Shown: one piece after another, positions 43,677 through 63,319 of the stretch
Layout of the letters: each line of letters starts with the position of its first letter
How positions within the stretch are numbered: position 1 is the stretch's first letter
Origin: Bacteroidota bacterium
GTDB taxonomy: Bacteria > Bacteroidota > Bacteroidia > B-17B0 > Aurantibacillaceae
Direction of reading: 5' to 3'
Length of the DNA: 64,000 nucleotides
Assembly: GCA_018267825.1 (NCBI GenBank)
Contig: JAFDXR010000001.1
Location: forward strand, 877 to 64,876
Notes under the pieces: model-generated
The model's input: the letters and a program-made list of their open reading frames with translations, nothing else
Told to the model about the DNA's origin: nothing
Databases searched by the model: none
Made by a program: the position numbers and the translations under genes

Positions 43677-46600
43677 TTAAATCACTTCGAAATGGATAAG
43701 CCAGCGCTTTCGGTCGTCCTGAATCTTAACGTCGTCTTCGAAAGCAGCTACAACTATTTGAAGACAGAGCTGGTAGTTATTGTCTGCCGAGGCAGGAATT
43801 TCTTTGAGCTGTTTAAGTTTCTCATTGATTTCGTCCTTACTGCCGACAAAGTTGTTTTTTAAGATACTTTCGCAGACCGCTTTTAGAAATGGCAAGCAAA
43901 TGTATTTTTTGATAGCACCAAATCTATCAAACGTATTTGCGAAGTGTGGATAGATGTTTAGAAGATCATTCATGGCGCTTACTTCCTTATGTTTATAAAA
44001 GATCAGTCCCAATAAGCTAACAGCGTGAAGTGTTCGTCGTGTTTTAGAATGACTGTTACCGAAGTCAATAATTTCCTGTCTACTCAACTTTCTCTTCAAT
44101 ACCCCATCGCATATAAAGTACAAGAGATGCCAGAGCTCTTTATCTGACGCGTCTTCGATATAGTTGTAGAGCAGCTTCAGAAATTTTTCCTGGAGCTGGT
44201 TGGCATTTTCGGTATTACTGATCTTATGGAGAAGTACATCCATAAACATTGGAATAATCGCTGTATCGACCGTAGTGTCCTCAGCCCGGTTCCAGTCTTC
44301 GCTTGGCTTTTCTTTCAATACTTCGGCAATGGAACTATTTTTAAAGCCCTCGTATTTCTGAGGTGAATCACCCTTCAGATGGGTACTGAGTGCAGCGAAT
44401 AACAAATGAGATTCGAACGCTTCATCGTATTTGCCATTAACCAACGAGTATTCCAAGCACATTGTCGATACCATCAAAAGGATATCATCCTTTCCGTTTT
44501 TACGAGCCAGGTCAAAAGCTCTGACTGCCCAAGAATAGGCTTGAGTAATTTCGTCAACGCCCTCAGCAAAAAGCGCCATTTCAGAAAGTAGGATGGGATC
44601 ATTGGTGATTTTGTAGAGATCAGACAAATCACTTTTCTGAAACAAAAACATCCCTTGAAACGGCTTGGTGAAATCTTCGCCCCCGGTTTTTGGAACTACA
44701 CCATGTGCAAGTACGTTACTATAGTATCCGACAACATGTGCGGACAGCACATAGTATTTTATCCATTCCGTCTTTGGGTAAAAAACGTCATCTTTAGCGA
44801 ACACCTTTTCTTTCACTGAAAACAATCGATTTACAGCGTTCTTAAAGTAGGAATACGCATCGGCGTAATTTTGATTCTTATAACACGCAATTGAACATTC
44901 GCAGAGAGCAAGAATACAGTCCAGCTCGTGATAGTCCTGTTTAGCCTCAGCAAGCTCAACTGCTTGCTTACAATAAACCTGGGCTGAACTAGAGTCTACA
45001 TCACTGGTTGATACAGCTGCATACAACAACGTTTCGACAAAATTCACTTGATCTACTGCCTGAAACGCAACAGCCTCCGTTAAGTACTTCCGTCCCTTTT
45101 CAGGCTCTTTGTTATTCCAGTACAGTTTACCTAACACATCCGTTATAATGAACTTTGATATAGGATTAGTAAAAGATGCAAGTACTTCGTCCGCAAGTTT
45201 TTGCGCATTGTCAGGCGCACTCTGCTCAGTGAACAAATTCTCAACTAACGCTCGGGTGGCCAATGCTTCTAAAACCTCCCTTTTTGACTTCCTGAATCGT
45301 TCTATTAATTTACAATAGAGTTCGACGATCTCTTCATTTTTTACTCCGGTGTGTTTAAATCGAGATATGGTATGACAAATACCTGTAACAGCAATTTCCG
45401 AAATGTCATTTTCAAAAATGTCTTTAGCGAATAATGCTTCAAATTGATCCCCAATAGCCAACCATTTTCGGATTTCCTCTGGTCTTGAAAGCAACACTGT
45501 AGGAAGCCAAAGAATATTTGTCAAATTGTCTATTCCTACTGCATCTTTGTGTCCTTGTGGTAGCCCCGTCCACATCTTTGCCACTTCATCGATATGATAC
45601 CAAAACCGATCGAGATTAGACTTATCAAAATTCGCTAGTATTGTGAAGTGTATAAGTACTTTCTCCGTCTCTGAAAGACCGTCCTCCAATAGGTATTGCT
45701 CCAATTGTGAAAGCAAAAATGGAACTTTTTCCTTCTTTTCCCGAGAAAGGCGCAGCTGCTCCCCACGAAGATAACTTCTAAGAACTACTGGCATCCGCAT
45801 AGGAATATCAGCTTCCGACCAGTAATCCAAAAATCCCCATTCCGAAATGTTTTTTACATCCTCTTGTGTTTTTACCGACTGATAAATGCTTAGCAATATA
45901 CCTCCGGCACTCAGATAGTCTTGACCTTGTAAGAAAGACACAATAGAACGGGAAGCTGTAATTGGGTCAATTTTTTTACCCTTTATTAGATTACTCGCAA
46001 CGGCAAGGTGAGTATTTTTGAAAACTTCTGCGCTTAGATTTTTTTTGCCGAGATCGTAAATAAGAGGAGACACCTGGTACAATTTGGTTCTATGTTCTTG
46101 AACCCAGGTGTTTAATATGTCTGTAAGCCGCTCGTTTGGGTAAGAGATCACAGCCTCAACGGAACATATGTTTTGTACTTCTTCAAAAGTGAAAGGCCAA
46201 TGAAACAAACTCATCCTATATAATAGTTCTCTTGACTGTTCATTGGTTATAAACCTATTGATCGATTTTTGTGCATCATCTAACACATCATTCTTAAAGT
46301 TCTTATTGAAGAACACTTCAAACAACTCCCCTGAATCCCTACCCCAATTAATTCTCTGTAGGTCTCTAATTACCGCGCCCACGAGTCTTGGATTTTTATC
46401 AGTTACAGCCGAGATCAATGGCACATAAGCGGCGAGAGACTTGTCACCGCCAGCATTTATTATATACTCAATGATTTCATCATCGGAAAACCTCAGATCG
46501 TTGTACTCCACAAATGTTTTTTCATCAATTTGATCTTTAACAAAATGTGGAACAGTGAAATTTGAAGTTGAAAGTAATTTACAGCCATTTGTAAGAGCAT

Positions 46601-47954
46601 TTTTGATATTGACTATCGTCTGAGCTAGAGTCGAGTCTTTGACCAGTTCAGGCAAGTCATTCAATATGATTATGGAATCTTTTGGCAATTTGAGCACCAC
46701 GGTTTTGATCCAAGAAATTTTGTCCCGGTGAATAGGTTCACTGGAGATATATTCAAGGAACTTCAATAAAATTATGGCGGCCTTGTCTGGCTCGGTCAAA
46801 TAAGGCCTCAATTCCAACCAATAGTGTTTTGCATATTGTTGTGAAACCAATGCTGCTAATTGAGACTTCCCGGTACCATTAATTCCCTGAAAACTTATCC
46901 AGTCGTATTTAGAACATAGCAATAACACTTCTTTCACCTTTATTTCACGTGTCGACCCGTTCCTGATGCCCGGTGGCGGTTCAGTAGACAGGTTGTTAAG
47001 TGCAAGTTCAAAGACCGAATCCGACTTTGCCAATACTGCGAAATCTTGCGCCAGTTCTTTTATGCTTGTGGATGCTCCCTCCATTTTTGCTTCTAGAGAA
47101 GCTACCCGTTCGTTTATTTCGTTTGCAAGCGCAACAACACTTTCGAATAGCTTTTGATCCGTCGCGGACAGCGCGGGCAGTTTAATTTCAGATTGTAGAT
47201 CGGCTAAAGTAAGTTGTTTCAGCCCTTTGTTTGTGAGAAGTTTGAAAACATAAAGAAATAACCTTGGGTAAACCGATGCGGCATGGCTCGCATCGGTTAC
47301 ATACCGCTTAACAGTAAGAGCTTTCTCTATTGCCGCAGATAGTCCTTTTGCGTCCTCATTCTTCAGACTCCATTCGAATGTGTGCAGAAAATCTGCGAAG
47401 CCTGCTGGGGCATCTAAAAATGCTTTGAAACTAGTTAATTGATCAATGTCTTCTTGCTTTCCTTTTTTTTGGATCAGATCATCGATCTGTTCTTGATACT
47501 TTTTCGCAAGGTGCTTTTTAATTATTAGAACATCAGGGGTTTTATCATCAGCGTCTGCATTTTGGAAGAGGCTTGTCCAGACTTTTATAGCTGCTTCGCC
47601 AGTTTGCTGGAAGATAGCCGGACGTTCAATGCCGTAGTCTGAGTTGGTAACAAATCTAAAAAGAAGATTTTGACCTGAATTGTTCTGTCTTTGAATGTGA
47701 AAGTTCAACAATGTCTCTAAGACAGTTTCGTTGTTTAAGGTAACGTTAGTTTCTCTATACTTAATTTGTTCTAATTCGCGCGAGACCTCTAGTTTCGTTA
47801 GGTCACGATTAACAATGTCGATATCTTCCCCCCGTTCTAGCTGGAGTACAGTATTCTCATCCAATTGAAGCCATCTAAGGATAGTTAAATCGACCTGATA
47901 TACGTAACCTCGTATTGTGCTCCAAGCATCTCTATTTGCAATTTCTTTAAACAT
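43677..47954 (-). CDS. STAND-type NTPase with N-terminal Cap4/DUF4297-like nuclease (Avs-like antiphage protein)
   Basis: The protein has 1425 residues. The N-terminus matches the DUF4297/Cap4 PD-(D/E)xK-type nuclease: GYVYQ (16-20), acidic cluster LERGEDIDIV (Glu40, Glu43, Asp44, Asp46) and EQIKYRE (Gln63, Lys65). The P-loop is FQGINGTGKS (357-364 core) and Walker B is IIILND (428-433). A winged-helix-like region and a long alpha-helical TPR-like C-terminus (~650-1425) follow. This order (nuclease, STAND ATPase, repeat sensor) is that of Avs/NLR-like proteins that recognise a phage protein and then cut DNA. The target is unknown. Cap4 itself is activated by cyclic oligonucleotides, but no CD-NTase gene is present here. 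The ATG at 47954 follows the upstream small ORF by 6 bp. Confidence 0.8.
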   Translation of the reverse strand: MFKEIANRDAWSTIRGYVYQVDLTILRWLQLDENTVLQLERGEDIDIVNRDLTKLEVSRELEQIKYRETNVTLNNETVLETLLNFHIQRQNNSGQNLLFRFVTNSDYGIERPAIFQQTGEAAIKVWTSLFQNADADDKTPDVLIIKKHLAKKYQEQIDDLIQKKGKQEDIDQLTSFKAFLDAPAGFADFLHTFEWSLKNEDAKGLSAAIEKALTVKRYVTDASHAASVYPRLFLYVFKLLTNKGLKQLTLADLQSEIKLPALSATDQKLFESVVALANEINERVASLEAKMEGASTSIKELAQDFAVLAKSDSVFELALNNLSTEPPPGIRNGSTREIKVKEVLLLCSKYDWISFQGINGTGKSQLAALVSQQYAKHYWLELRPYLTEPDKAAIILLKFLEYISSEPIHRDKISWIKTVVLKLPKDSIIILNDLPELVKDSTLAQTIVNIKNALTNGCKLLSTSNFTVPHFVKDQIDEKTFVEYNDLRFSDDEIIEYIINAGGDKSLAAYVPLISAVTDKNPRLVGAVIRDLQRINWGRDSGELFEVFFNKNFKNDVLDDAQKSINRFITNEQSRELLYRMSLFHWPFTFEEVQNICSVEAVISYPNERLTDILNTWVQEHRTKLYQVSPLIYDLGKKNLSAEVFKNTHLAVASNLIKGKKIDPITASRSIVSFLQGQDYLSAGGILLSIYQSVKTQEDVKNISEWGFLDYWSEADIPMRMPVVLRSYLRGEQLRLSREKKEKVPFLLSQLEQYLLEDGLSETEKVLIHFTILANFDKSNLDRFWYHIDEVAKMWTGLPQGHKDAVGIDNLTNILWLPTVLLSRPEEIRKWLAIGDQFEALFAKDIFENDISEIAVTGICHTISRFKHTGVKNEEIVELYCKLIERFRKSKREVLEALATRALVENLFTEQSAPDNAQKLADEVLASFTNPISKFIITDVLGKLYWNNKEPEKGRKYLTEAVAFQAVDQVNFVETLLYAAVSTSDVDSSSAQVYCKQAVELAEAKQDYHELDCILALCECSIACYKNQNYADAYSYFKNAVNRLFSVKEKVFAKDDVFYPKTEWIKYYVLSAHVVGYYSNVLAHGVVPKTGGEDFTKPFQGMFLFQKSDLSDLYKITNDPILLSEMALFAEGVDEITQAYSWAVRAFDLARKNGKDDILLMVSTMCLEYSLVNGKYDEAFESHLLFAALSTHLKGDSPQKYEGFKNSSIAEVLKEKPSEDWNRAEDTTVDTAIIPMFMDVLLHKISNTENANQLQEKFLKLLYNYIEDASDKELWHLLYFICDGVLKRKLSRQEIIDFGNSHSKTRRTLHAVSLLGLIFYKHKEVSAMNDLLNIYPHFANTFDRFGAIKKYICLPFLKAVCESILKNNFVGSKDEINEKLKQLKEIPASADNNYQLCLQIVVAAFEDDVKIQDDRKRWLIHFEVI

Positions 47955-48070: not shown

Positions 48071-51000
48071 CTACCTTCTAAATTCAAAAGTTTTAAACTG
48101 ATCATTGCCAAGAAATTGAAATTTTTGTGTGAATAGAAAAGCAATATTCTCATTAGCTGTTGCAAAGAATATCTGTCTGCCTCCATTTATCACGACCTCT
48201 CTTAAATAATCAAAATATGATAGAATATTCAAGTCATCTATGTTAGTAACAGGATCATCAAATAATAAAATATTTGGTCCATTTTTAAGTTTACGATTTA
48301 AGGCAGAAAAAATTGATAATGCTAAGGCTGATCTTTGACCAGTACTTATTTCGGTTAAAGTTGCCGGTTTTACTTGTCCACTTCTCATTAATTCAATGTT
48401 TCCATTCGTATCGAAGACTAACTGATCAAATTCTTTTGGACTATGTATCACTTTAAAAATCTCCGAAATTTCTTTTTTGTTTTGCTCTATAAATTTCTCA
48501 AGGAAAGCTTCTTTACTATGATTTTTGAAAATGTCACCAATCACTTTCATTGCGTCAGCAGCTCGTTTACGTTTTGGCTTTATTAGTGCCAGTTCCTTTT
48601 GAGCATGTTTAATCCTTGATTCTGCATTGGCAATGCGTGAATCATGCTCTTCCTTCTCAAGCAATATTTTTTTATAGGTTGTGATCAGTTTTTTTAATTT
48701 TTCAATTCCCGACTGGATTACGGAAAGTTTTTCATTTGCTTTAATATTAACATATTTGTCCATTTCCAGAAAATACTTTCGAGCGTCAGTAAGATTACTA
48801 ATTCTCCTTTCTAAAACAACCTTTTGATCTCTGCCTTCTATTCCTAAAACTGAAAATGTTTCTTTTAGTTTTCTTTCTAATGCTTTGATTGATTTATCTA
48901 AAATACCGACCCTTTTCTTTAGTTTAACGACATTCCCTTTTACTTCAGCGTACAATCTATCATAGCCCTTTTTATCCTTTATTTCTACCCCCCATGAATC
49001 TAATTCCCGCATGTACGTTTCGAATTTTTTCTCCGTAAGTCCTTTATCTTTAAAGAAAGTTTGAAGTTCAATCAATTTGGTTAGCTGATTTGTTTCAATT
49101 CTCAAAGCCTCTGCTGTACTCTTAATTTCTTTTTCAAGAGTGTTGGGGCTCTTTGTTCCTACTTTATCCGAGTGTATTAATTCTCCTACTTGTTTTATTT
49201 CTTCTAAAGCAGATAGGATAACTGTTTCTTGTTTTATTTGTTTTTTAAGAGTTGATATTTCAATTAATACATCATCGAGGACCCCCGAAGATTTTATAGT
49301 TTTTCGTCCATTCTCTATTGATTTTATTAATTCATTTTTAGGAAATATGGTGTAACAAAGTGGACACTCGTTATGATCAGGATTTAATTTTAGAAATTCC
49401 TTCCCGCGAGATTTAATTTCGGCTACTAATTTCTCTAATTGTGAAAAACCAATTTCCATTTTATTTCGTTTTTCACTCAGTTTTTTCAAGTCAGCCTCTT
49501 TTTCATTAATAGTTTCTTTTATCTTTGATTCTATCGTGTTTATTTTGAGGCTCCGATAGTTTTCAGGTATTTGAATAAAATCCAATTTAGATGCTAATCT
49601 TGTAACTTTCGTAAGTTGATCTATCAATTCCTTTTGTTCACTTATTCTAAAGGAGAGGTGTTTTAATTGATTAATCTTAGGTTCATCAAAATACTCTTTC
49701 AAATTATCTAAATCACCTTCCAATTCACTCTGTGCTTCTAACTCCGAGCTCAGCTTTTGAAATTCTTTATTTTCAGTCTTAATAGAATCCTCAATTTTCT
49801 TGATTTCATTTAAGCATTGTTCATGTTCATTAAGGCCTTTTTCAACTGAGTTATATCCTATGATATTATACCAAGATAATATTTTTTCTATTGTGCCAAT
49901 TAAGGTTAACGAATTTGAGATCCTTTTTTCTTGCTCGACAATGGTTTTATTATTCCATATTTTCTCACCAATGTCCCATTTTATTGCCTTTGCTTCTTTG
50001 GCAATCTCTTTTAAAAACATTTCGGGACTATTATCTTGTTCTAATAATTCTGCTGTCAATTTTTTCTGAGAGTGGATTGTGTCTTCATGCTCGACTACTA
50101 ATTTGTCATAACCCTTAAGAGCACTTTCAAATCGATCATAATAGCCGTGAAGCTTACTCTCCATAGTGTTAACTTCAGATCCCAGAGCAATGTCCTGAAA
50201 TGCCGATCTTACCGCGTTTTGATTGGTGTCAGAAGCTAAAGAAGATGCAGCGTCAGTATTAAAGAAATTGAAGCGATTAAAACTTATGTGCATCCGGTTT
50301 CCTTTCTGATCAATATTATTGTACCATGCTTTATCTCTCTCTTTATAAATGGAATGATTGTAAGGAGCCAAGGGAACTAAAGACGGATTACCTGAAAATG
50401 CCGCTTTCAATTTCACTCCCACATTCTCGGATTTGGCATTACGATTAGTTCGTCCGCAAAGCATTAATTCGATTGCTTCTAGAGTTGACGTCTTTCCGCT
50501 TCCGTTAATACCTTTAAAAAGATTAACTTTCCCAAAATTGAACTCACTTTGGATTGGGTGATTACGATACCGTTCAATTTCTAATCGATCAATTGAAAAT
50601 ACTTTCTCTTTCGAATAACTACCTATGTTGATGTCATCTTTTTCAGATGAAATTTCCGGTTTGCCGTTCAGAAATTTATCAATACCATCTTTATATGTAA
50701 TATCTAAAAAGACTGCATCCAGCTTTGCAGATTTTAATTTATTAATCCAAACAGAACTAAGATCCCGCTCAACAACGGAATTAGATGATTTGCTAAGGTC
50801 ATTTATACGACTTAACCATTGATCGAGTTCCTGATTTGAAAGGATTTGCTTTCTACTATATAATTCATCCCTCTCAATCTCCTTTTTCTTTTCAGAGTGT
50901 CTATTTATTTCAGTTGAACTCGAAACAAAAGTATAATAGAAGTTCCATTGGAGAGGGCCAGATTCTTTATAATAATCATTTAATAGAACGTGTTCCTGAT

Positions 51001-51190
51001 AGGCTTCTAGGTCTTTTACTGAAAAGCTATCCTTTAACCAAGCGTCACTGCAATCCACATATAGAATTTGATAAGGTTGTTGATTGAAGTCTTTATGACA
51101 CCTGAAAATATTAGGATTGTCTTTAACTTGAGTAATAGCATTACTTGCTATATACTTCTGAAGTATTTTTAAGGTTTCTGCTTGTTTCAT
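48071..51190 (-). CDS. Rad50/SMC-like ATPase with zinc hook and novel N-terminal domain (LmuB-like)
   Basis: The protein has 1039 residues. About 200 N-terminal residues (YQILYVDCSDAWLKD, PLQWNFYYTF) precede the ATPase and match no domain I know. The RecF/Rad50-type ATPase follows: FNFGKVNLFKGINGSGKT (Walker A core 227-234), then long coiled coils with a CPLC zinc hook at 609-612, then the ABC signature ISTGQRSALAL and Walker B NILLFDDPVTNIDD near the C-terminus. It is predicted to bind DNA ends or structures and to dimerise through the hook. The ATG overlaps the stop of the nitrilase-like gene by 4 bp, indicating coupled translation. The pair resembles the effector plus LmuB layout of Lamassu. 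Confidence 0.82.
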   Translation of the reverse strand: MKQAETLKILQKYIASNAITQVKDNPNIFRCHKDFNQQPYQILYVDCSDAWLKDSFSVKDLEAYQEHVLLNDYYKESGPLQWNFYYTFVSSSTEINRHSEKKKEIERDELYSRKQILSNQELDQWLSRINDLSKSSNSVVERDLSSVWINKLKSAKLDAVFLDITYKDGIDKFLNGKPEISSEKDDINIGSYSKEKVFSIDRLEIERYRNHPIQSEFNFGKVNLFKGINGSGKTSTLEAIELMLCGRTNRNAKSENVGVKLKAAFSGNPSLVPLAPYNHSIYKERDKAWYNNIDQKGNRMHISFNRFNFFNTDAASSLASDTNQNAVRSAFQDIALGSEVNTMESKLHGYYDRFESALKGYDKLVVEHEDTIHSQKKLTAELLEQDNSPEMFLKEIAKEAKAIKWDIGEKIWNNKTIVEQEKRISNSLTLIGTIEKILSWYNIIGYNSVEKGLNEHEQCLNEIKKIEDSIKTENKEFQKLSSELEAQSELEGDLDNLKEYFDEPKINQLKHLSFRISEQKELIDQLTKVTRLASKLDFIQIPENYRSLKINTIESKIKETINEKEADLKKLSEKRNKMEIGFSQLEKLVAEIKSRGKEFLKLNPDHNECPLCYTIFPKNELIKSIENGRKTIKSSGVLDDVLIEISTLKKQIKQETVILSALEEIKQVGELIHSDKVGTKSPNTLEKEIKSTAEALRIETNQLTKLIELQTFFKDKGLTEKKFETYMRELDSWGVEIKDKKGYDRLYAEVKGNVVKLKKRVGILDKSIKALERKLKETFSVLGIEGRDQKVVLERRISNLTDARKYFLEMDKYVNIKANEKLSVIQSGIEKLKKLITTYKKILLEKEEHDSRIANAESRIKHAQKELALIKPKRKRAADAMKVIGDIFKNHSKEAFLEKFIEQNKKEISEIFKVIHSPKEFDQLVFDTNGNIELMRSGQVKPATLTEISTGQRSALALSIFSALNRKLKNGPNILLFDDPVTNIDDLNILSYFDYLREVVINGGRQIFFATANENIAFLFTQKFQFLGNDQFKTFEFRR

Positions 51191-52956
51191 CTGCGTTTTC
51201 CTGATTTGATTGAAATTCGAGAGCGATTGGTGTTTTCGGTGAATTTTGGTTTCTCTGATACAAATTCCTTCTGTGTTTGTAAATTATCGTCAACGTACCA
51301 GACGACAGTACGTTTGCCATATTGATCTTTAGTGAAAAGCGAGATCATTTTGTTAAGGACCGCTTTTGCATCATCAGTTGTTGCCTGACCAATAAAAGCA
51401 CCACAAGCTGGGATTCCGTTGTTATTTGCGGGATAAAGATTCAAATTGAATTCATCCTCGTAGCCAGGTATCCTATAGTTGATACTACAGTTGTTGGCAA
51501 GATCGTTAATTGACGGTGGAAATAAATTAGGATCTATAATTATAGTGTACTCGAGTGTACCATATTTTAATAAAATTGCTCGTCTCTCAGTTAAGGTAAC
51601 GGGACAGGGGTTTTGCGTAAAAGTCATCCGTTTATTTATTTCATCATCCTTAATAAGAAAAAAAGTGTTTTTTGCTGGATCAAACCAGTTCTCATAAGTG
51701 GCTTTGCCGTTGCTCAAGTAAAGAAGGCGTTCAGTATCAATGGGAGAGGTTCTTGAATGAGCCAAAATGAAATTATAATTCCGGCCATTATTTAAAGCGA
51801 CACATGTTTGCTGTAACCCCCCATCTAAATTAGCTCCATGTTCCCACTGATTATTGATTGCGTTCCATACCAGGGTCTCTTCCATTTCAGGGCCACTTCT
51901 TTTGCGATTTGCCGGATCAGCGAAGGATTGGGAAGGTTTAGTGGTTCTTAAAAAGAAAACGTGCTCGTCATAGTTAAGAAGGAAAATATGCGCGTATTTA
52001 TCTTTCCAATGGGTATAATACATACCAAGCAGTTGATTCTTATTCAATCTTTCGTCGTTGGTGTTTATATCTCCTTTTTTCTCAGGCTTTATGTAAAATG
52101 CTGAACCGCCGTAGGCATTCCAAGAAGCATTGTTAACGATTACGTTTCTAGCCCAGTTTAGACAAAGAAATTCCTTGTTTTCCCGACCCATTCCATAAAT
52201 ATTTCTACGATATTGACAGTAGTTTCCATGATTGGGAGCCTTATTGAGCTGTATGTGTATTATCAGATATGCACTGTCAGCAAAGTGGGGATGATCGAGA
52301 TTATTTAAATCAGGACTTAGGGCATCGGAACAAATTAAAGTCAAAAGTCTTGAAGAATGGTTACCACTATTTTCCAAAATATAAATTCTTGAACCGGGAA
52401 TAAAATTGTCGCGCTCCCATTCAAGGTCTGCACCTCCTAGAAAATGTGTTTTAAATTGAACGATTATAACTGTTCTTACGGTATTTGCATTATCTCTAGT
52501 TTTGAAAATATAACAAACAGGATCAAAGAAGCGTTGATTATTCAGATTACCATTAATTACTGCGTTCTCAACAATCCAAGTAATGTTGTTACGTTGATTA
52601 ATAAAATCGTTCAGTTGACCAGCTTTGATTGACTCGCAACCGACTACCCAAATTTTGTTTTCTTCGGGAAGGATAGAAGAATCAACTAGATTGGCTATGA
52701 CGGACCAAGGGCATGAGTACTCTGGAGTAATTGCGAGGTCTACATTCTTTTCGCTAGCCAAATCAAAGAAGGAATTGAATTTCGCCTCTGCTGTTGGTAT
52801 ATCAGCTATTCTAATAAAGTCATTGCCAAATGCAAGAGTTCCTTGCGGTTGCAATAGAAGAGAAGTATAGTAATCAGCATCTGGCCGAAGTAAAGTCAAA
52901 TTTGGCTTTCTTAGGTTGAGTGCGTTAAAATATTCATCAATAAGTTTATATTCCAT
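51187..52956 (-). CDS. Nitrilase-fold (carbon-nitrogen hydrolase) putative defence effector
   Basis: The ATG at 52956 gives 589 residues; a GTG four codons earlier (52968) is the alternative. The N-terminal half is a CN-hydrolase domain with a complete triad: Glu79 (AITPEYSCPW), Lys169 (VQFKTHFLGG) and Cys209 (LLTLICSDAL), with family-like spacing (40 residues between Lys and Cys). The C-terminal ~270 residues are unrecognised. Nitrilases hydrolyse nitriles or amides, including NAD-pathway amides, and occur as effectors of some reverse-transcriptase defence systems. Gene position, 22 bp after jetD and overlapping the SMC-like gene by 4 bp, indicates operon membership. It is probably an effector or signal-making enzyme, by inference. 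Confidence 0.8.
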   Translation of the reverse strand: MEYKLIDEYFNALNLRKPNLTLLRPDADYYTSLLLQPQGTLAFGNDFIRIADIPTAEAKFNSFFDLASEKNVDLAITPEYSCPWSVIANLVDSSILPEENKIWVVGCESIKAGQLNDFINQRNNITWIVENAVINGNLNNQRFFDPVCYIFKTRDNANTVRTVIIVQFKTHFLGGADLEWERDNFIPGSRIYILENSGNHSSRLLTLICSDALSPDLNNLDHPHFADSAYLIIHIQLNKAPNHGNYCQYRRNIYGMGRENKEFLCLNWARNVIVNNASWNAYGGSAFYIKPEKKGDINTNDERLNKNQLLGMYYTHWKDKYAHIFLLNYDEHVFFLRTTKPSQSFADPANRKRSGPEMEETLVWNAINNQWEHGANLDGGLQQTCVALNNGRNYNFILAHSRTSPIDTERLLYLSNGKATYENWFDPAKNTFFLIKDDEINKRMTFTQNPCPVTLTERRAILLKYGTLEYTIIIDPNLFPPSINDLANNCSINYRIPGYEDEFNLNLYPANNNGIPACGAFIGQATTDDAKAVLNKMISLFTKDQYGKRTVVWYVDDNLQTQKEFVSEKPKFTENTNRSRISIKSGKRR

Positions 52957-52978
52957 AATCGTATACACTATCTAATTT

Positions 52979-53905
52979 TTAATTACTGTCTAGCATTTGA
53001 ACCAAATTATTAGCTTCTTCAACAATCCATTTGTCCTGTTTAATCAAATCAACTATTATAGCTTGTTCCTTTTCTCCAAATATTTCCTTCTTCAAGCCGG
53101 AAAGTTTTTCAGGTGAATTTCTGTACAGCCATTGACTTTCGTGATCTGTTTCCTTAATTCCTTTTGGTAAAGCAGTAGGAATGAGAATCTTTATTGATGG
53201 AATTCTCTCTAAAACGAGCGAAAAGATGTCCAAACCATCGTAATCCCAATCACATGAGTAATAAATAGGTAGGCCTCTCGTGTCAGCAAACTCCAATTTA
53301 TTTACATTCCTGCCTCCGGCATACCAGAGTTCAATGCCATTTTTGCGAGGAAGCGCGGGGCGCTTCAGAAAATCTGAATTTTCGCATAAAACAATGCATT
53401 TTGGATTTGAACAGTCAAGCACGTATCTATATTGCTGATCCTTGTCATTAGCAAATTCCCTGATGTCTAAAATTTTCTTTACAGCATCTACTAAAGCGGA
53501 TTTTCCTTCGAGGTATTTGTCATTTTTAAAAAACATCAAGGAAACGCCTCTTACGCTTTCTTCGGATTCAATTATCTGAGTTCTCAACGCGCTTAAGTCC
53601 CCGCTTTTCATATCAGCGAGCATGCCCATCAGAATAATAATATCTGCTTCTTCGAAGCGCGTTTGTGGCTTTAGAAGACTATTTTCAATGAGGAACTTGT
53701 TATAGGTTTCAAATTTCGGCAACCACTTTTCTTCATAATGCAACTTAAAACCATTACTGGCAGTAAGGTATTTTGAATCCTCTTTTAATTCTCTTGTATT
53801 CCTGATCAAATATTTAATGTATGGGTCTTTAAGCAAAGTAGTTTTTTTGAGGGTTTTACCTTCGATATAAACTTCATGCAGGGACCTGAGGCATATCCAA
53901 TTCAT
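52979..53905 (-). CDS. jetD: JetD/MksG-like Toprim nuclease of a Wadjet system
   Basis: The protein has 308 residues. The C-terminal half is a topoisomerase-VI-like Toprim domain: CIVLCENSDFL (Glu175), GGRN (197-200) and YSCDWDYDGLDIF with the metal Asp residues 219, 221 and 223. These correspond to the VEN-x-x-x-F and D-x-D-x-x-G motifs of DUF2220/JetD. JetD nicks or cuts closed plasmid DNA once the JetABC motor has extruded it. It is shorter than commonly described JetD proteins, so the N-terminal arm region is reduced. It overlaps jetC by 4 bp and is the last gene of the Wadjet set. Confidence 0.83.
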   Translation of the reverse strand: MNWICLRSLHEVYIEGKTLKKTTLLKDPYIKYLIRNTRELKEDSKYLTASNGFKLHYEEKWLPKFETYNKFLIENSLLKPQTRFEEADIIILMGMLADMKSGDLSALRTQIIESEESVRGVSLMFFKNDKYLEGKSALVDAVKKILDIREFANDKDQQYRYVLDCSNPKCIVLCENSDFLKRPALPRKNGIELWYAGGRNVNKLEFADTRGLPIYYSCDWDYDGLDIFSLVLERIPSIKILIPTALPKGIKETDHESQWLYRNSPEKLSGLKKEIFGEKEQAIIVDLIKQDKWIVEEANNLVQMLDSN

Positions 53906-56900
53906 CTTTTCAAGTTCTCTAAATATGTTTGTAAATCCTCAGAATCATCATTCGTTTTAAAATAGCTAGCCGGAACGTGATAATTAACATTATTGTCGGG
54001 CTTACCTTTAATGAGATGATACAGATACCAGCCCTTATCTGTATTTGAGCCATACGGCTTCGGTGTCATTGTTATGATCTGATAACCATATTCGGCGGCC
54101 AGATCCGGAAATGTATTAAAGTTTGTTTTATCTAAATTGGAAGTTTCCTCGAGAATGATAAATTTAATTCCTTTATTCTCACTCTGAACTTTAGAGAGGC
54201 GCGCAATACCGAGAAGCACCAAGGCGGCATAGGTTTCACCGGTACTTCCCGGAATCTCATTATTGTTTTCGTCAGTTAATACCGCGTCCAGCAAAAAATA
54301 GGTCTTTGGATTAAGAAGATCAGTAAAGGATATTTTCTTACGGTATTTAGTGGCTTTTCTGAAAAAATCTTCCACAAATTCCTCAATGCTTTGTCCGATT
54401 GGTAATTCACCATCTTTATAAATATTTTTGATCTGGCTTTGAAGACCATCAATCCAATCAACAGAGAAATCTTTATTGGCCTTGAACTTGATCTGGAAAT
54501 AGTACTCCGTACTGATCTTCTTTCCTTTGAAGAAAGTGTTAAGATCCATTACTAGTCCTTCGTAATCTTCATATTTTTTCTTGGTTGATGAAAATATCTT
54601 CAGCATTGTTTCATGGATCGCATCCGCAACATTTAGCCTGTTACGGTTGGCTTCTCTAAGTTCGTCACCTATTTTATCGACGTGCTTAATTTTAGATCCC
54701 AGTAAAATATTTTCAAGTACAACGAACAAATACTTTTTATCATTGACCTGTTCGCTAACCTCTGAGCTATTTTGGTCTTTGGTCTCATCATATCTTGTGA
54801 TAATCGATTTGTAATCCGTAATATAATCTTCACGTAAATCGGCATGTTCTTTTTTACTATCTGTAGTGAGCTTTTCTGTTATCTTATTGTGCTTTGAGAA
54901 GTCGATAAAAAAATCGCCTAAAGATTGCTTTACCTCTTTTTCCTTTGCAACAAATTCAGATTGGGAGTTATTCGCTAAAGCCTCAAGTTCGTCAAGTTTT
55001 TTAAGATCTTCAGAGTGACTCTTCAAAAGATTCTTTTCTTCCGCCTTCCAATCCGCCAACTTATCGTATAAGCAATTCCTCTTTTTTTCTCTGGCCTCTA
55101 AAAGATCTGTAATTTTTTTAATGTACTTTTCTATCTCGCCCCAAGGAACAGCAGATGATATAGGACTATAGATCTCTTTTACTGCATTCTCTTTTATAGA
55201 TTTTTCCTTTTCCAGTGAAGAAATCTTCTTATCAATATTCTTGAGCAAACCAGCGGTGAGGTTATACTCATTATAAGATGTATAATCTTTTAATTGCTGA
55301 TCGAATTCGTAATCGATGTCCAATTTACTAAAGTCAAAGTGATTTCCCCTCTCGAAATTCTCTATCTGATGAAGGAGGTCCTCTTTAATTTTTTTTTGAT
55401 CTACCAATTGCTTGACGCGAGACTGAAGTGCCTGCTTTAATTTGGTAGGATCATTGAAAATTTGCTTCTGATCTGAAAAGGGTATAAAGGTGTGCAAGTC
55501 GCCGGATTTGAACCAGTAACCTCTCTTCTTTGTGTCCTCAGAAATGTTAGATTGTGAAAGAATATCAAGGCTGGTTGCATACTGATCACCTGCCTTTGCG
55601 GATGTAGGTTTTTCCCAACGCACTTTGGACAAATACATAAGTATTGTTTCCTGAGAAACAGATAAGCGAGAAGCATTTTCAATAACTTTAGATAAAAGTG
55701 TGTTCTCATTGTTTAATGATACGATCTTGCTTAGTTCTTCTGTTTCGGCGATCTCCTGACGAATAAGACTTTTTGTTTTTGTAAGCATTTCGGACTGCTC
55801 TCCAACCTTTGATCGCATAGCTGAAACCGATCCGTATTTTTCAATTATGGGACGAAAAGCTTCAACCCTGACCGCGATATCATCTGTTCGAAAATCGTTA
55901 ATGTTGATGGAAACTTTATCCCCATCTAAAATCCCTGAAACTTCGACCTTAGATATCTTATCTATCTCCTTTTTAATATTCGATATTTCGTCCACTAGAC
56001 CTTGTATCCGCCCAAAACTTATCACGGATTGCCGAAGCGCTTTTGTTTCCAGATCCGACCTAGTATGAAGTTTTTCTAATTTTGGTATTTCCTTTTTACG
56101 TTTTTCAATTAGCGCTATATCTGACTCAACCTTTTCTTTTGCGACACGAAAATTATTTGCGGCAACTTGAAACTTATTATGAGAAAGAATCACATCCAAT
56201 TCGGCGTATTTTCTATGAGCGGCTCGCTCAAGTTCTTCTTTGGATTTTAAAGCAGTTAGGTCGCCCTGCTTTTTTTCTAAAACCGTAATGTTATGATCAA
56301 GCTCTTTATACTCCAAAAGTAACTTTTCGAGTCTGACTTTGTGTGCATGAAAACTCTTGTGTAGCTCTTCTTTTGAATCTTCGAATAGAAAATCTTGTAG
56401 ACTTTTTGAGTTGTCGATGTCAAGTGACCGGGCTTTAGAAAAGGACTGAATTATTTTGGCAAAAGCGTTAAGATTGTTCTCAATGGTTAGGTTTATACAC
56501 AATATCCGCTTATTAAACAGAAAATTATAGTATTCATCCTTCTCGTTTTTAAATGTAAAGTCTTTAAGAAACAAATCATAGGTGTCTCTAAAGTGTTTAC
56601 TGAGATCTTCTAAGGGAAGGAAAGATCCGTCCTTAATAAAATGCCTATGCATTGGCATCTTATCGGCGGTAAAACTTAAATCACTAAGCTCTTTAGACAT
56701 ATCCGCATCGCTTAAAACCACGAAAGGCCTTATCTGACGACTTTTTTTATTTGGAATAGCGACACCAATGGTAATATAACGACCTTTGCTCACTTCAATG
56801 TTCATAAAAGCATAAGCGTCGTTTGTTTTATACGGAAGCGTGTAAGGCTGACGTTCTGCTTTTTTCAAACCATCGGTTCCGAATTCTATCAGGTCATAAT

Positions 56901-57057
56901 CATAAATGAACATCAATTGCAGGAGATCTGCTATGATCGACTTACCTACACCATTACCGCCGGTAAAATCAGTTCTTTCGGGATGTAAGAGATAATCCTG
57001 ATTATAATGCTTTCTCAGACCAACTGTTGATATTGAATATATAGGAAAGAAACTCAT
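53902..57057 (-). CDS. jetC: JetC/MksB-like SMC ATPase of a Wadjet system
   Basis: The protein has 1051 residues. The N-terminal ATPase half has Walker A GGNGVGKS (33-40), preceded by YLLHPERTDFTGG. Long coiled coils span about residues 215-880 with a hinge-like break in the middle (about 480-530). The C-terminal half holds the signature GSTGETYAALVLL and Walker B IKFIILEETSNLD. This is the MukB/MksB/JetC organisation. It forms the loop-extruding motor with JetA (kleisin) and JetB. It overlaps jetB and jetD by 4 bp on each side, so the four genes are translationally coupled. Confidence 0.87.
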   Translation of the reverse strand: MSFFPIYSISTVGLRKHYNQDYLLHPERTDFTGGNGVGKSIIADLLQLMFIYDYDLIEFGTDGLKKAERQPYTLPYKTNDAYAFMNIEVSKGRYITIGVAIPNKKSRQIRPFVVLSDADMSKELSDLSFTADKMPMHRHFIKDGSFLPLEDLSKHFRDTYDLFLKDFTFKNEKDEYYNFLFNKRILCINLTIENNLNAFAKIIQSFSKARSLDIDNSKSLQDFLFEDSKEELHKSFHAHKVRLEKLLLEYKELDHNITVLEKKQGDLTALKSKEELERAAHRKYAELDVILSHNKFQVAANNFRVAKEKVESDIALIEKRKKEIPKLEKLHTRSDLETKALRQSVISFGRIQGLVDEISNIKKEIDKISKVEVSGILDGDKVSININDFRTDDIAVRVEAFRPIIEKYGSVSAMRSKVGEQSEMLTKTKSLIRQEIAETEELSKIVSLNNENTLLSKVIENASRLSVSQETILMYLSKVRWEKPTSAKAGDQYATSLDILSQSNISEDTKKRGYWFKSGDLHTFIPFSDQKQIFNDPTKLKQALQSRVKQLVDQKKIKEDLLHQIENFERGNHFDFSKLDIDYEFDQQLKDYTSYNEYNLTAGLLKNIDKKISSLEKEKSIKENAVKEIYSPISSAVPWGEIEKYIKKITDLLEAREKKRNCLYDKLADWKAEEKNLLKSHSEDLKKLDELEALANNSQSEFVAKEKEVKQSLGDFFIDFSKHNKITEKLTTDSKKEHADLREDYITDYKSIITRYDETKDQNSSEVSEQVNDKKYLFVVLENILLGSKIKHVDKIGDELREANRNRLNVADAIHETMLKIFSSTKKKYEDYEGLVMDLNTFFKGKKISTEYYFQIKFKANKDFSVDWIDGLQSQIKNIYKDGELPIGQSIEEFVEDFFRKATKYRKKISFTDLLNPKTYFLLDAVLTDENNNEIPGSTGETYAALVLLGIARLSKVQSENKGIKFIILEETSNLDKTNFNTFPDLAAEYGYQIITMTPKPYGSNTDKGWYLYHLIKGKPDNNVNYHVPASYFKTNDDSEDLQTYLENLKR

Positions 57058-57740
57058 TTAGGATCGTTATGTTGTTTGTATATCTCGACAAATTTTTCAA
57101 AATTCTCCAAGGCTTCCTTATAGAGCGTAGCAAATCTGTGAATACTCTCTTTTATTTTGAAATGAATCTCGTTATCACCAACTTCCTTGTTTCTTTTTAT
57201 CCATCCTAAAACCTCAAAATGACCTAAAGCTCTCACAATTTTTGTTTTGACTACCTTCCACTCAGGATCGGAATAATCTTCGCGCACGGAATTGAAAAAA
57301 ATCTGTTTATAATACGAGCTATTTTCATTTTCTTTGATTTCCTTACGAATGTCTTCCCAGGTAATATCTTTAGATTGTTCGAAATACCTGTCGTAATACA
57401 TTTTTAATAAAGAAATTCCAATAATAACCTCAAATTCGGTGAGTTCGCGATGCCTGCTCTGATGAGATATTTTTCCTTTTGATTCTTCAAAAAAATCTAG
57501 ATAAAAGAATGTTTCACTATTAAATCTTTCTTTAGCCAACCTTAAAGAATAGAATACTTCATAGTATTTGGCTATAGGACCTTCATACTGAGTTAAGAGA
57601 TGATGGAGGTAATGATCGTCACTTTGCACGTGTGCACCTCTAAGTAGACTTATATTTAAGTCAGCAAAATGGGCTTTGGACAGTTCGTCCATCAAAAAAC
57701 TAAGATCTAGTTCTTCTTTTGAGACAGATTCATTTTCCAT
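57054..57740 (-). CDS. jetB: JetB/MksE-like condensin accessory subunit
   Basis: The protein has 228 residues. The N-terminal segment ISLLRGAHVQSDDHYLHHLL resembles MksE/MukE (LLRG-x-H-x-Q-x-DD). The C-terminal winged-helix-like part contains ALGHFEVLGWIKR and FKIKESIHRFATLY. MksE/JetB binds the kleisin and the SMC heads. It overlaps jetA by 34 bp and jetC by 4 bp. Confidence 0.8.
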   Translation of the reverse strand: MENESVSKEELDLSFLMDELSKAHFADLNISLLRGAHVQSDDHYLHHLLTQYEGPIAKYYEVFYSLRLAKERFNSETFFYLDFFEESKGKISHQSRHRELTEFEVIIGISLLKMYYDRYFEQSKDITWEDIRKEIKENENSSYYKQIFFNSVREDYSDPEWKVVKTKIVRALGHFEVLGWIKRNKEVGDNEIHFKIKESIHRFATLYKEALENFEKFVEIYKQHNDPK

Positions 57741-59086
57741 AAGAGAATACTTTTTTCTTCACTATTATCAGGTAATTCACGTTCAATTTTTACTTCCATG
57801 TCTTTTGAACTGTGCACATATTGCAGCAAATCATAACCTACATTAACAGGTATTTCTATATCATTTTCTTTATTAAGGATCTCATAGAACTTGTCTGTGA
57901 AATCAAGTTCCTTTCTATTTTTTAGTTCTTTGATAAGGGATGCAGACCATTTTTCTATACGATGAGATCTACTTAGTTCTTCATTAATCAACTTTCTTTG
58001 CTCGTTCTCATAGTCCTTATCGATTTGCGCTGGTATAACATTACGGATAATGGTAGGATTTAACAGATCATAAAATGATGCTATTTGAAACCTTGTTTTT
58101 TCAAAAGGAATAATCTTTTTCGGAAAATTGGGTAGCGCCGGTCCTTCTTTTGTATATACAGCACTTGACAACATTAACGTTGTTAGTTTTTTGATATTCA
58201 CGCGGAATTTTGTCTGATACCTGAAGTTTTCGTAAAGTTCATTCAGTTTGGTGCTGGCGAATTCAATCTTCTCTCTTAACTGTCCTAATTTTTCGTCAAT
58301 AACCTCGAAAAAGTCCCTAACCTCATTTTGAATTACCACAGCCCTATTATAATTCGATTCCAAGGTGTTGTATGCAGATCGTTCCTCCTCAGTTTGAGGA
58401 TGTGGGAAATCCTGAATCCAAGTATAAAACATTTGAATCACTTTTCGGATCTCTTGCTCTAGACTGTTTCCGAGGCGCAAAGTATCCCTTATCTCATCTG
58501 CTTTAAAACCGAGGTTCTTAAAAATTCCAGTAAACCTTGTCACTATTTCAGAAACGTTTCCATTATCGATCTGCAAAATTGAATTGAGCTCTTTAATATT
58601 TTGAGTTACGTCGTCTTTCAAAGCTTCAAGGTGCTGAATAATATTTTGCTTGGTTGTATAGTTAAAACCTTGTTGATACCAACTTTCAAAAAGTTCAATT
58701 GTTTGAATATCTTCGGCACTAAATTCTGTATACTTTTTAAAACTCTCGCGAAGTGGAAATTTTCGAAAGGGGTTGTTTATCTTGTGGTTGATGAGCTCAA
58801 CAAATTTGAGAGCGTATTCTGTGAGTTTATATCTATTGTTTTTATTTGCAGGGCGCTCAATGAAATTATGAAGTAAGTTTCTTAACAGACGTTCGGTGTG
58901 CGGCTCCCTACCTATGTCCAAGATCGCAGTTTCCTTAATGGCCTGCTGAATATCCTGATAAGTAAAATTCCTATCGATGTTCTTATTCTCAATTTTCCTT
59001 TGTAGCAGAAATATGATCATTCCTTCTTCTCTGGTGGGCAGAAGAAGGTCATAATCCCTGTGTATATCCCTTAGCTCTTGAAACAC
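57707..59086 (-). CDS. jetA: JetA/MksF-like kleisin subunit of a Wadjet system
   Basis: The GTG at 59086 gives 459 residues (VFQELRDIHRDYDLLLPTRE). A TTG frame starting at 59119 is open, but a TAnnTTTG promoter element lies at 59108-59115 inside that extension, so GTG is preferred. The protein is largely helical: an N-terminal winged-helix-like region (YQDIQQAIKETAILDI), a central coiled coil (~180-300, including VRDFFEVIDEKLGQLREKI) and a C-terminal region. No strong motif is visible by eye; the call rests on size, helical pattern and its place before jetB, jetC and jetD. It opens the minus-strand defence operon. Confidence 0.7.
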   Translation of the reverse strand: MFQELRDIHRDYDLLLPTREEGMIIFLLQRKIENKNIDRNFTYQDIQQAIKETAILDIGREPHTERLLRNLLHNFIERPANKNNRYKLTEYALKFVELINHKINNPFRKFPLRESFKKYTEFSAEDIQTIELFESWYQQGFNYTTKQNIIQHLEALKDDVTQNIKELNSILQIDNGNVSEIVTRFTGIFKNLGFKADEIRDTLRLGNSLEQEIRKVIQMFYTWIQDFPHPQTEEERSAYNTLESNYNRAVVIQNEVRDFFEVIDEKLGQLREKIEFASTKLNELYENFRYQTKFRVNIKKLTTLMLSSAVYTKEGPALPNFPKKIIPFEKTRFQIASFYDLLNPTIIRNVIPAQIDKDYENEQRKLINEELSRSHRIEKWSASLIKELKNRKELDFTDKFYEILNKENDIEIPVNVGYDLLQYVHSSKDMEVKIERELPDNSEEKSILLWKMNLSQKKN

Positions 59087-59107
59087 GTTTAGTCGTAAAT
59101 GGTATAT

Positions 59108-59115
59108 CAAATATA
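59108..59115 (-). promoter_or_regulatory. Candidate -7 element (TATATTTG) of the defence operon promoter
   Basis: TATATTTG matches the Bacteroidota sigma-A -7 consensus TAnnTTTG exactly. A clear TTTG-type -33 box at the usual distance is not evident (only a TTC/TGTTC segment). Transcription would start close to 59100, upstream of the GTG start of jetA at 59086. Confidence 0.45.
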
Positions 59116-59219
59116 TCAAAAAACATGAAATTTAGAACAGACTTGACAGGGTGTATCTTGCATAGGATCATGAAGTTTGCTACCTTAGAATTACTGAGAA
59201 ACTCGGCGGAACTCCACCT

Positions 59220-59269: not shown

Positions 59270-59450
59270 GATCGATACACTTGCCGGTAAGCTCGTCAAC
59301 CAGCCGTTACTACTTTGTTCCGTGAAAGGGTCAAAGCATCAAAAATCAACGTTTCAATGTCCGCCAAACTCGGCAAAACTCCGCCGAATCGAGCCTAAGT
59401 GTGCTAAACTCTGCCCTTGTCGGCATTATACCGCCAAACCAGGGGGTGAT

Positions 59451-63285: not shown

Positions 63286-63319
63286 AAGGGATGCGTCCTA
63301 ACCCCTAGACGAACGGGCC
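63245..63319 (-). tRNA. tRNA-Glu (UUC), island attachment target
   Basis: On the minus strand the acceptor stem GGCCCGT pairs with ACGGGCT (G1-U72 wobble). The anticodon arm is CATCC-CTTTCAC-GGATG with anticodon TTC, and the T-arm is ACGGG-TTCGATT-CCCGT. The discriminator is A and CCA is encoded (63245-63247). It is 75 nt with CCA. Its 3' half (63245-63285) overlaps the end of the recombinase gene on the opposite strand. The tRNA looks complete. Confidence 0.93.

What the first reader, a model, noticed from the sequence alone, without database searches (positions are those of the whole stretch)
43677..47954. STAND NTPase with an N-terminal Cap4/DUF4297-type nuclease
The protein combines GYVYQ, the LERGEDIDIV acidic cluster and EQIK (nuclease) with an intact P-loop and a ~750-residue helical C-terminus. 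The sensor domain of such proteins decides the phage trigger, and here it is not recognisable by eye.
Basis: partly seen in the sequence, partly recalled or inferred. Interest (0 to 1): 0.55.

Follow-up and report, generated by a model that had tools for sequence, protein, structure and literature searches.

The report
Nuclease-armed bacterial virus-alarm protein
This gene most likely encodes one large bacterial immune receptor that joins a DNA-cutting domain, a molecular switch resembling animal cell-death proteins and a long ligand-sensing coil; it belongs to an apparently unstudied family of a known type of antiviral alarm.

Summary
In detail: one intact 1425-aa ORF (43677-47954, -) with every quoted motif in place. 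AlphaFold2 and fold comparison give an N-terminal Cap4/DUF4297/LmuA nuclease (Z 19.0 to the HerA-associated DUF4297 nuclease), a CED-4/APAF-1-type switch (Z 21.2) and a C-terminal TPR-like solenoid. The "unrecognisable" sensor is therefore TPR. Of 39 related loci in species genomes, 26 hold a full-length gene (1390-1480 aa). D46, Q63 and K65 are invariant in 29 of 29 rows; K363 is kept in 28. No constant partner gene was seen, so it is most likely a stand-alone, Avs3-like STAND nuclease; trigger and activity are inferred. No Avs model or Avs PDB sequence matched. The best defence-model hit is LmuA, and an LmuB-like gene lies 116 bp upstream, so an automated Lamassu-Cap4 call is likely but probably wrong: that LmuB type pairs with a nitrilase-like gene in all 4 loci examined. 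New member of a known kind, in a low-GC, three-system defence island near a serine recombinase and tRNA-Glu.

The parts
43677..47954 (-). Cap4-STAND-TPR protein, 1425 aa, whole gene
   Evidence: full-length homologs
47172..47954 (-). Cap4/DUF4297/LmuA-type nuclease domain, residues 1-261
47817..47819 (-). D46, proposed PD-(D/E)xK metal ligand, invariant in 29 of 29 rows
   Evidence: paired with D40 of DUF4297-HerA by motif order (PMC11291478 passages)
47760..47768 (-). Q63-I64-K65, proposed catalytic QxK; Q63 and K65 invariant in 29 of 29 rows
47028..47165 (-). long linker helix 264-309 (region 251-325 has 20% mean pairwise identity)
46296..46991 (-). STAND NTPase core, residues 322-553, CED-4/APAF-1-like
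46863..46886 (-). Walker A GINGTGKS, residues 357-364
46656..46661 (-). N432-D433, Walker B position by eye; D433 invariant in 29 of 29 rows, residue 432 is N in 8 rows and D in 21
45975..46295 (-). winged-helix region, residues 554-660, with SPL motif 629-631 where NB-ARC proteins have MHD (recalled; equivalence by eye)
43680..45974 (-). C-terminal helical TPR-like solenoid, residues 661-1425, presumed sensor
44613..44765 (-). better-conserved stretch 1064-1114 in the sensor half, W..H..GY..P..DG..P..G.F..Y, partly non-helical
48071..51190 (-). neighbour, not part of the proposed system: LmuB-like SMC/Rad50-type ATPase with an MComp1-like N-terminus and CPLC zinc-hook-like motif (by eye)
51187..52968 (-). 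neighbour: nitrilase-like protein (by eye), presumed effector partner of the LmuB-like gene

Best explanation
A stand-alone antiviral STAND receptor that works like Avs3. At rest the protein is held off with ADP in its CED-4/APAF-1-like switch. An infection cue, most likely a conserved phage protein, binds the C-terminal TPR solenoid; nucleotide exchange opens the switch and several copies assemble. Assembly brings the N-terminal Cap4 nuclease domains together so that they cut double-stranded DNA, destroying phage and host DNA and ending the infection by growth arrest or cell death. Shown here: one intact gene, the three domain folds as predictions, conserved catalytic and nucleotide-binding residues, full-length conservation, no constant partner gene in the loci held, other defence genes near the two relatives that were checked. 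Inferred: nucleotide-driven assembly, DNA cleavage, abortive outcome, and the nature of the trigger.
For: Nuclease: LmuA and DUF4297 models (LmuA matched by 26 and DUF4297 by 24 of 27 family members), DUF4297 PDB chains E 2e-7 and 5e-5, fold Z 19.0, 3.0 A over 199 residues. D46/Q63/K65 invariant in 29 of 29 rows, the same D...QxK order as D40/Q53/K55 mutated in DUF4297-HerA (passages). Switch: Sr35 and APAF-1 chains by profile (E 1e-4, 1e-3), CED-4 Z 21.2, 5.0 A over 313 residues. Architecture: Avs3 bound to terminase is the top Foldseek hit. Sensor: designed TPR E 7e-9, TPR fold matches. Mean pairwise identity falls from the nuclease (38%) to the C-terminal segments (18-26%). Module exchange: the nuclease with an NB-ARC/TPR chain or an nSTAND3 switch (L045, L046); switch and C-terminus with another N-terminus (L012). 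Context: Septu PtuAB beside L015's gene and an E1-E2 gene near L003's.
Against: No activity, assembly or phage trigger was tested. The window clade has Asn at the first Walker B position (8 of 29 rows), which might weaken hydrolysis. No Avs model or Avs sequence matched. The sensor half also holds a better-conserved stretch, which is not what a pure arms-race surface would show. pTM of the N-half model is 0.56, so the placement of nuclease against switch is not reliable. One relative (L019) has an SbcC/Rad50-like gene 39 bp upstream, and only two relatives' neighbourhoods were checked with defence models (one further neighbour in L015 gave no PADLOC hit).
Confidence: 0.72

Rival explanations
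1. It is the LmuA effector of a Lamassu system whose LmuB is the gene just upstream.
For: Best PADLOC hit is LmuA; an LmuB-like gene on the same strand ends 116 bp upstream; the nuclease has the LmuA fold, Z 17.5-17.6; relative L019 has an SbcC/Rad50-like gene 39 bp upstream.
Against: The two solved LmuA chains listed are 377 and 391 aa, against 1425 aa here with its own NTPase. The window LmuB matches nothing at E<=1e-3 in 46 loci of relatives (some are short, and divergent LmuB types could be missed); 18 of 27 full-length loci hold no other ORF over 500 aa with a G..G.GK[ST] P-loop. In the 4 loci where near-full-length relatives of this LmuB were examined (window, L095, L096, L100) the nitrilase-like gene is its neighbour, with no Cap4-STAND match in the three others.
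Confidence: 0.07
2. It is a STAND nuclease, but its cue is not a phage protein: plasmid entry, DNA damage or a host state.
For: The sensor half keeps a better-conserved stretch 1064-1114 across phyla; neighbours in the island are SMC-type systems of kinds described as acting on plasmids (PMC10586767 passages).
Against: Same architecture as Avs3, which binds phage terminase (title of 8dgc); two relatives lie among other defence genes.
Confidence: 0.15
3. All seven collinear genes (JetABCD-like, nitrilase-like, LmuB-like, Cap4-STAND) form one composite defence operon.
For: Same strand; spacing from a 34-bp overlap to a 116-bp gap.
Against: Each block is found without the others in the DNA held: JetABCD-like in L098, nitrilase-LmuB in L095, L096 and L100, Cap4-STAND relatives in 46 loci.
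Confidence: 0.05
4. A decayed or purely regulatory STAND protein without nuclease activity.
For: Asn at the first Walker B position in the window clade.
Against: Full-length frame, invariant nuclease residues and P-loop.
Confidence: 0.04

Closest known systems
Avs3 (antiviral STAND, PDB 8dgc)
   Same: N-terminal Cap4-type nuclease (Avs3 cap4 domain named in PMC11291478), central STAND NTPase, long C-terminal sensor; top Foldseek hit of residues 1-735
   Different: No sequence match at E<=1; 1425 aa against a 2028-residue chain; the switch aligns better with CED-4 and APAF-1
CED-4 / APAF-1 / plant NLRs (NB-ARC); bacterial AP-ATPases with TPRs (PMC7159879 passages)
   Same: Switch fold, Z up to 21.2 over 313 residues; DD-type Walker B by eye in 21 of 29 rows; TPRs behind an AP-ATPase are described in bacteria
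   Different: The window protein is not listed for the Pfam NB-ARC model at E<=1; SPL stands in place of MHD (by eye, MHD recalled); Cap4 effector
Lamassu LmuA / Cap4 (CBASS) / DUF4297-HerA nucleases
   Same: Nuclease domain fold; D...QxK motif of DUF4297-HerA
   Different: Those work with a separate partner or a ligand-binding SAVED domain (LmuB and HerA; SAVED in the titles); here switch and sensor are in the same chain as the nuclease
Avs5 (Sir2-STAND)
   Same: Tripartite STAND plan (PMC12931631 introduction); EfAvs5 among the fold hits (E 1.5e-5)
   Different: Nuclease in place of Sir2

Membership tests
Antiviral STAND (Avs/AVAST) | effector - STAND NTPase - repeat sensor in one chain | tested here: met
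Antiviral STAND (Avs/AVAST) | sequence membership of a named Avs type | tested here: inconclusive
   No Avs model among PADLOC hits at E<=1 or among 27 members at E<=1e-3; no Avs chain at E<=1 in the PDB profile search. No Avs positive control was run; that PADLOC holds Avs models is recalled.
Antiviral STAND (Avs/AVAST) | activation by terminase, portal or another phage protein, then DNA cleavage | not testable with these tools
   needs bench work
PD-(D/E)xK Cap4/DUF4297 nuclease | fold and D...QxK residues | tested here: met
NB-ARC (AP-ATPase) STAND clade | Pfam NB-ARC match over its cut-off | tested here: not met
   not listed at E<=1; relative L011 reaches 18.5 bits against a cut-off of 23.5
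NB-ARC (AP-ATPase) STAND clade | CED-4/APAF-1-like NBD-WHD fold | tested here: met
Lamassu (LmuA) | encoded with LmuB as a constant partner | tested here: not met
   An LmuB-like gene is adjacent in the window, but the window LmuB matches nothing in 46 loci of relatives at E<=1e-3 (divergent LmuB types could be missed, and L019 has an SbcC/Rad50-like neighbour), and this LmuB type has a nitrilase-like partner in the 4 loci examined

The most novel reading that the evidence does not exclude
The family is a separate, multi-phylum lineage of single-gene bacterial death switches, a CED-4/APAF-1-type nucleotide switch wired directly to a Cap4 DNA nuclease. Its sensor recognises one conserved ligand through the stretch 1064-1114 rather than through a fast-changing surface, so that one kind of cue (phage or host) would be shared from Bacteroidota to cyanobacteria and Planctomycetota.
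Probability: 0.22. Interest if true: 0.6.

Novelty: new member of a known kind. Interest (0 to 1): 0.4.

Why it matters
It brings together a family of full-length Cap4-STAND receptors that the defence models used here name almost only by the nuclease (LmuA), so genomes that carry it beside an LmuB gene risk being filed as Lamassu-Cap4. It appears to couple an apoptosome-like switch to a DNA nuclease in one bacterial chain, with a conserved stretch in the sensor half that gives a concrete handle for finding its trigger.

Tried and rejected
Pfam on the window protein gave no nuclease or STAND domain, only three matches below cut-off. PF14130 over the own genome rang nowhere, the 14 control genomes included, so it is uninformative. 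phmmer of the single sequence against the PDB found nothing at E<=1; the family profile did. The first genome-contig scan with the single protein found no relative; the profile scan found 39 loci. No match in the phage collection at E<=1e-3; one relative on an IMG/VR contig (L099). Besides LmuA and DUF4297, weak PADLOC matches among 27 members were mad8 (5 members, best 4e-7), a CARF-HEPN model and IetA (1 each); mad8 is a MADS component model and in L011 and L013 it covers a short NTPase segment; I did not pursue it. Lamassu-Cap4 and a composite operon were considered and rated less likely (see rivals). No second tRNA-Glu attachment copy was found, so the left island end rests on G+C and gene content only. 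Flank-gene searches in the family did not settle an empty site. Promoter-like sites are at chance level (47 against 48.2 in shuffles); terminator-like 15 against 11.7, sd 3.7. No Rfam family at gathering score in 40-64 kb apart from the tRNA. The nitrilase-like protein has no Pfam or PADLOC match at E<=1, its best NCBIfam match is E 0.14 to an unrelated family, and no PDB sequence matches it alone (E<=1) or as a three-row profile (E<=10); its assignment rests on the invariant E83, K173 and C213 and is by eye. Haloarchaeal and other weak partial LmuB matches were not examined for neighbours. The tree is the quick one; the careful search did not finish. Literature: searches on STAND, Cap4, Avs, DUF4297, NB-ARC and NLR-like proteins listed no paper that I could identify from its listing as describing this family; I saw listings, plus passages of PMC11291478, PMC10586767, PMC7159879 and PMC10907252 and passages and the introduction of PMC12931631. 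Subscription journals are mostly missing, so absence from print is not claimed.

Rows dropped: the conservation count uses 29 rows with ORFs over 1350 aa. No usable full ORF was extracted for L033, L051, L052, L055 and L057.

Full report
Observation. The ORF at 43677-47954 (-) is intact, 1425 aa, ATG start.

Nuclease. PADLOC models LmuA (E 6e-12, residues 6-272) and DUF4297 (E 7e-9) match; of 27 family members 26 match LmuA and 24 match DUF4297 at E<=1e-3. A profile of 27 N-terminal halves matches the DUF4297 chains 8xav (2e-7) and 9c1m (5e-5). AlphaFold2 of residues 1-735 (mean pLDDT 87.5, pTM 0.56) gives the fold: 9c1m Z 19.0, 3.0 A, 199 residues; LmuA 9hr5 Z 17.6 and 9nxx Z 17.5; Cap4 6wam Z 13.9. 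E40, G42, E43, D44, D46, Q63 and K65 are invariant in 29 of 29 rows. D46, Q63 and K65 stand in the same order as D40, Q53 and K55 of DUF4297-HerA; mutation of its nuclease active site abolished defence (passages of PMC11291478). The pairing of these residues is by motif order.

Switch. The same profile matches Sr35 (1e-4, 2e-4) and APAF-1 (1e-3). Residues 323-676 align to CED-4 with Z 21.2 (5.0 A, 313 residues), and APAF-1 and plant NLR chains score about Z 13-19. Over both domains Avs3 bound to terminase is the first Foldseek hit (E 8.5e-12), with Avs4 at 3.9e-6; the Avs3 superposition is loose (rmsd 31.9), so the relative placement of domains is not supported. K363 is kept in 28 of 29 rows and D433 in 29. 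Residue 432 is Asn in 8 rows, the window and its close relatives, and Asp in 21. Where NB-ARC proteins carry MHD (recalled), the family carries S629-P630-L631 (28, 27 and 28 of 29 rows).

Sensor. AlphaFold2 of residues 640-1425 is confident (pLDDT 90.9, pTM 0.78) and nearly all helical. A profile of 27 C-terminal halves matches designed TPR proteins (best 7e-9, roughly residues 915-1010), and fold comparison gives mainly TPR domains (best Z 15.6). The tool warns that Z under about 13 may mean little for helical repeats, so the sequence match carries much of the claim. Mean pairwise identity is 38% for the nuclease, 29% for the NTPase, 33% for residues 546-660 and 18-26% for C-terminal segments. 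Within the C-terminal half, blocks 1076-1100 and 1126-1150 are the best conserved, and the stretch 1064-1114 holds W1064 (26 of 29), H1073 (27), P1088 (25) and P1098 (26); it is partly non-helical in the model. Against making too much of it: single positions elsewhere (W831, G942, A998, W1275) are kept in 28 of 29, and the stretch is incomplete in rows such as L024, L039 and L013.

Distribution and partners. A full-length relative was found in 1 of 59 other close genomes and in 2 of 394 others of the class. In the phylum set 5 of 394 others matched, 1 of them over the full length, a genome already seen. In the species collection 39 loci were found, 26 with ORFs of 1390-1480 aa, from Bacteroidota, Cyanobacteriota, Planctomycetota, Bacillota, Gemmatimonadota and others. 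A quick tree puts the window with the Bacteroidota rows. None of the window's six neighbouring proteins has a match at E<=1e-3 in 46 loci of relatives, and the nearest ORFs around 27 full-length genes show no constant neighbour by eye. With defence models I checked neighbours of two relatives: L015 lies beside Septu PtuA (E 3e-117) and PtuB (6e-44), and L003 has an E1-E2 gene about 3.7 kb away. L019 has an SbcC/Rad50-like gene 39 bp upstream.

Modularity. The same nuclease subfamily is fused to an NB-ARC/TPR chain in Paenibacillus (L045) and to an nSTAND3 switch in L046. A Priestia plasmid protein (L012) keeps switch and C-terminus but has another N-terminus. In an Aulosira plasmid (L011) the gene lacks the nuclease part; compared with the Chlorogloeopsis locus L032, otherwise 96-99% identical in the main aligned pieces, 2276 bp are absent, including codons 1-308.

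Why not Lamassu. The LmuB-like gene upstream invites that call. A review lists C-N hydrolase among putative LmuA effector domains (PMC10586767 passages), which fits a Lamassu-type pair of its own.

Setting. G+C is 0.31-0.41 over 44-62 kb against 0.42-0.47 in most of the window. The run JetA-JetB(MksE)-JetC(MukB)-JetD, nitrilase-like, LmuB-like, Cap4-STAND is collinear, spaced from a 34-bp overlap to a 116-bp gap; JetA is named by position and by its relatives in L097 and L098, not by a model. A large serine recombinase (61639-63285) ends inside a tRNA-Glu gene (63245-63319). This looks like a mobile defence island; its left end was not found.

Verdict. The best reading is a stand-alone Avs3-like STAND nuclease with a CED-4-like switch and TPR sensor. 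Its architecture is of a known kind; beyond the nuclease the defence models matched it only weakly (mad8 in 5 of 27 members, not in the window protein). Trigger, assembly and DNA cutting remain inferences.

Noticed in passing
48071-52968 (-): Nitrilase-like protein (593 aa; E83, K173, C213 invariant in 3 aligned rows) overlapping an LmuB-like ATPase (1039 aa, MComp1-like N-terminus). The pair recurs on a Polaromonas plasmid (L095), between apparent hsdR and hsdM genes (by eye) of a type I system (L096), and behind phage terminase, portal and head-tail adaptor genes on a viral contig (L100). Candidate Lamassu-type system with a C-N hydrolase-like effector.
   Followed up: partly
52979-59119 (-): Divergent Wadjet/MksBEF-like JetA-D set: MksE E 5e-20, MukB 28.6 bits, weak JetD; of the PADLOC Jet models only JetD3 matched, weakly. 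JetA-D relatives in L098; JetA-C without a detected JetD in L097.
   Followed up: partly
61639-63319: Large serine recombinase whose reading frame ends inside tRNA-Glu: probable integration site and right end of the island.
   Followed up: partly
L011 5887-9252 against L032 9992-14215: Natural nuclease-less version of the family on a cyanobacterial plasmid, differing from a near-identical locus by the absence of 2276 bp.
   Followed up: yes
L099 7932-12374: A family member on an IMG/VR contig with a phage-type exonuclease gene nearby.
   Followed up: no
59314-59330 and 63274-63290: 17-nt, 88% direct repeat between the region upstream of JetA and the tRNA-Glu gene; may be chance or an attachment remnant.
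   Followed up: no
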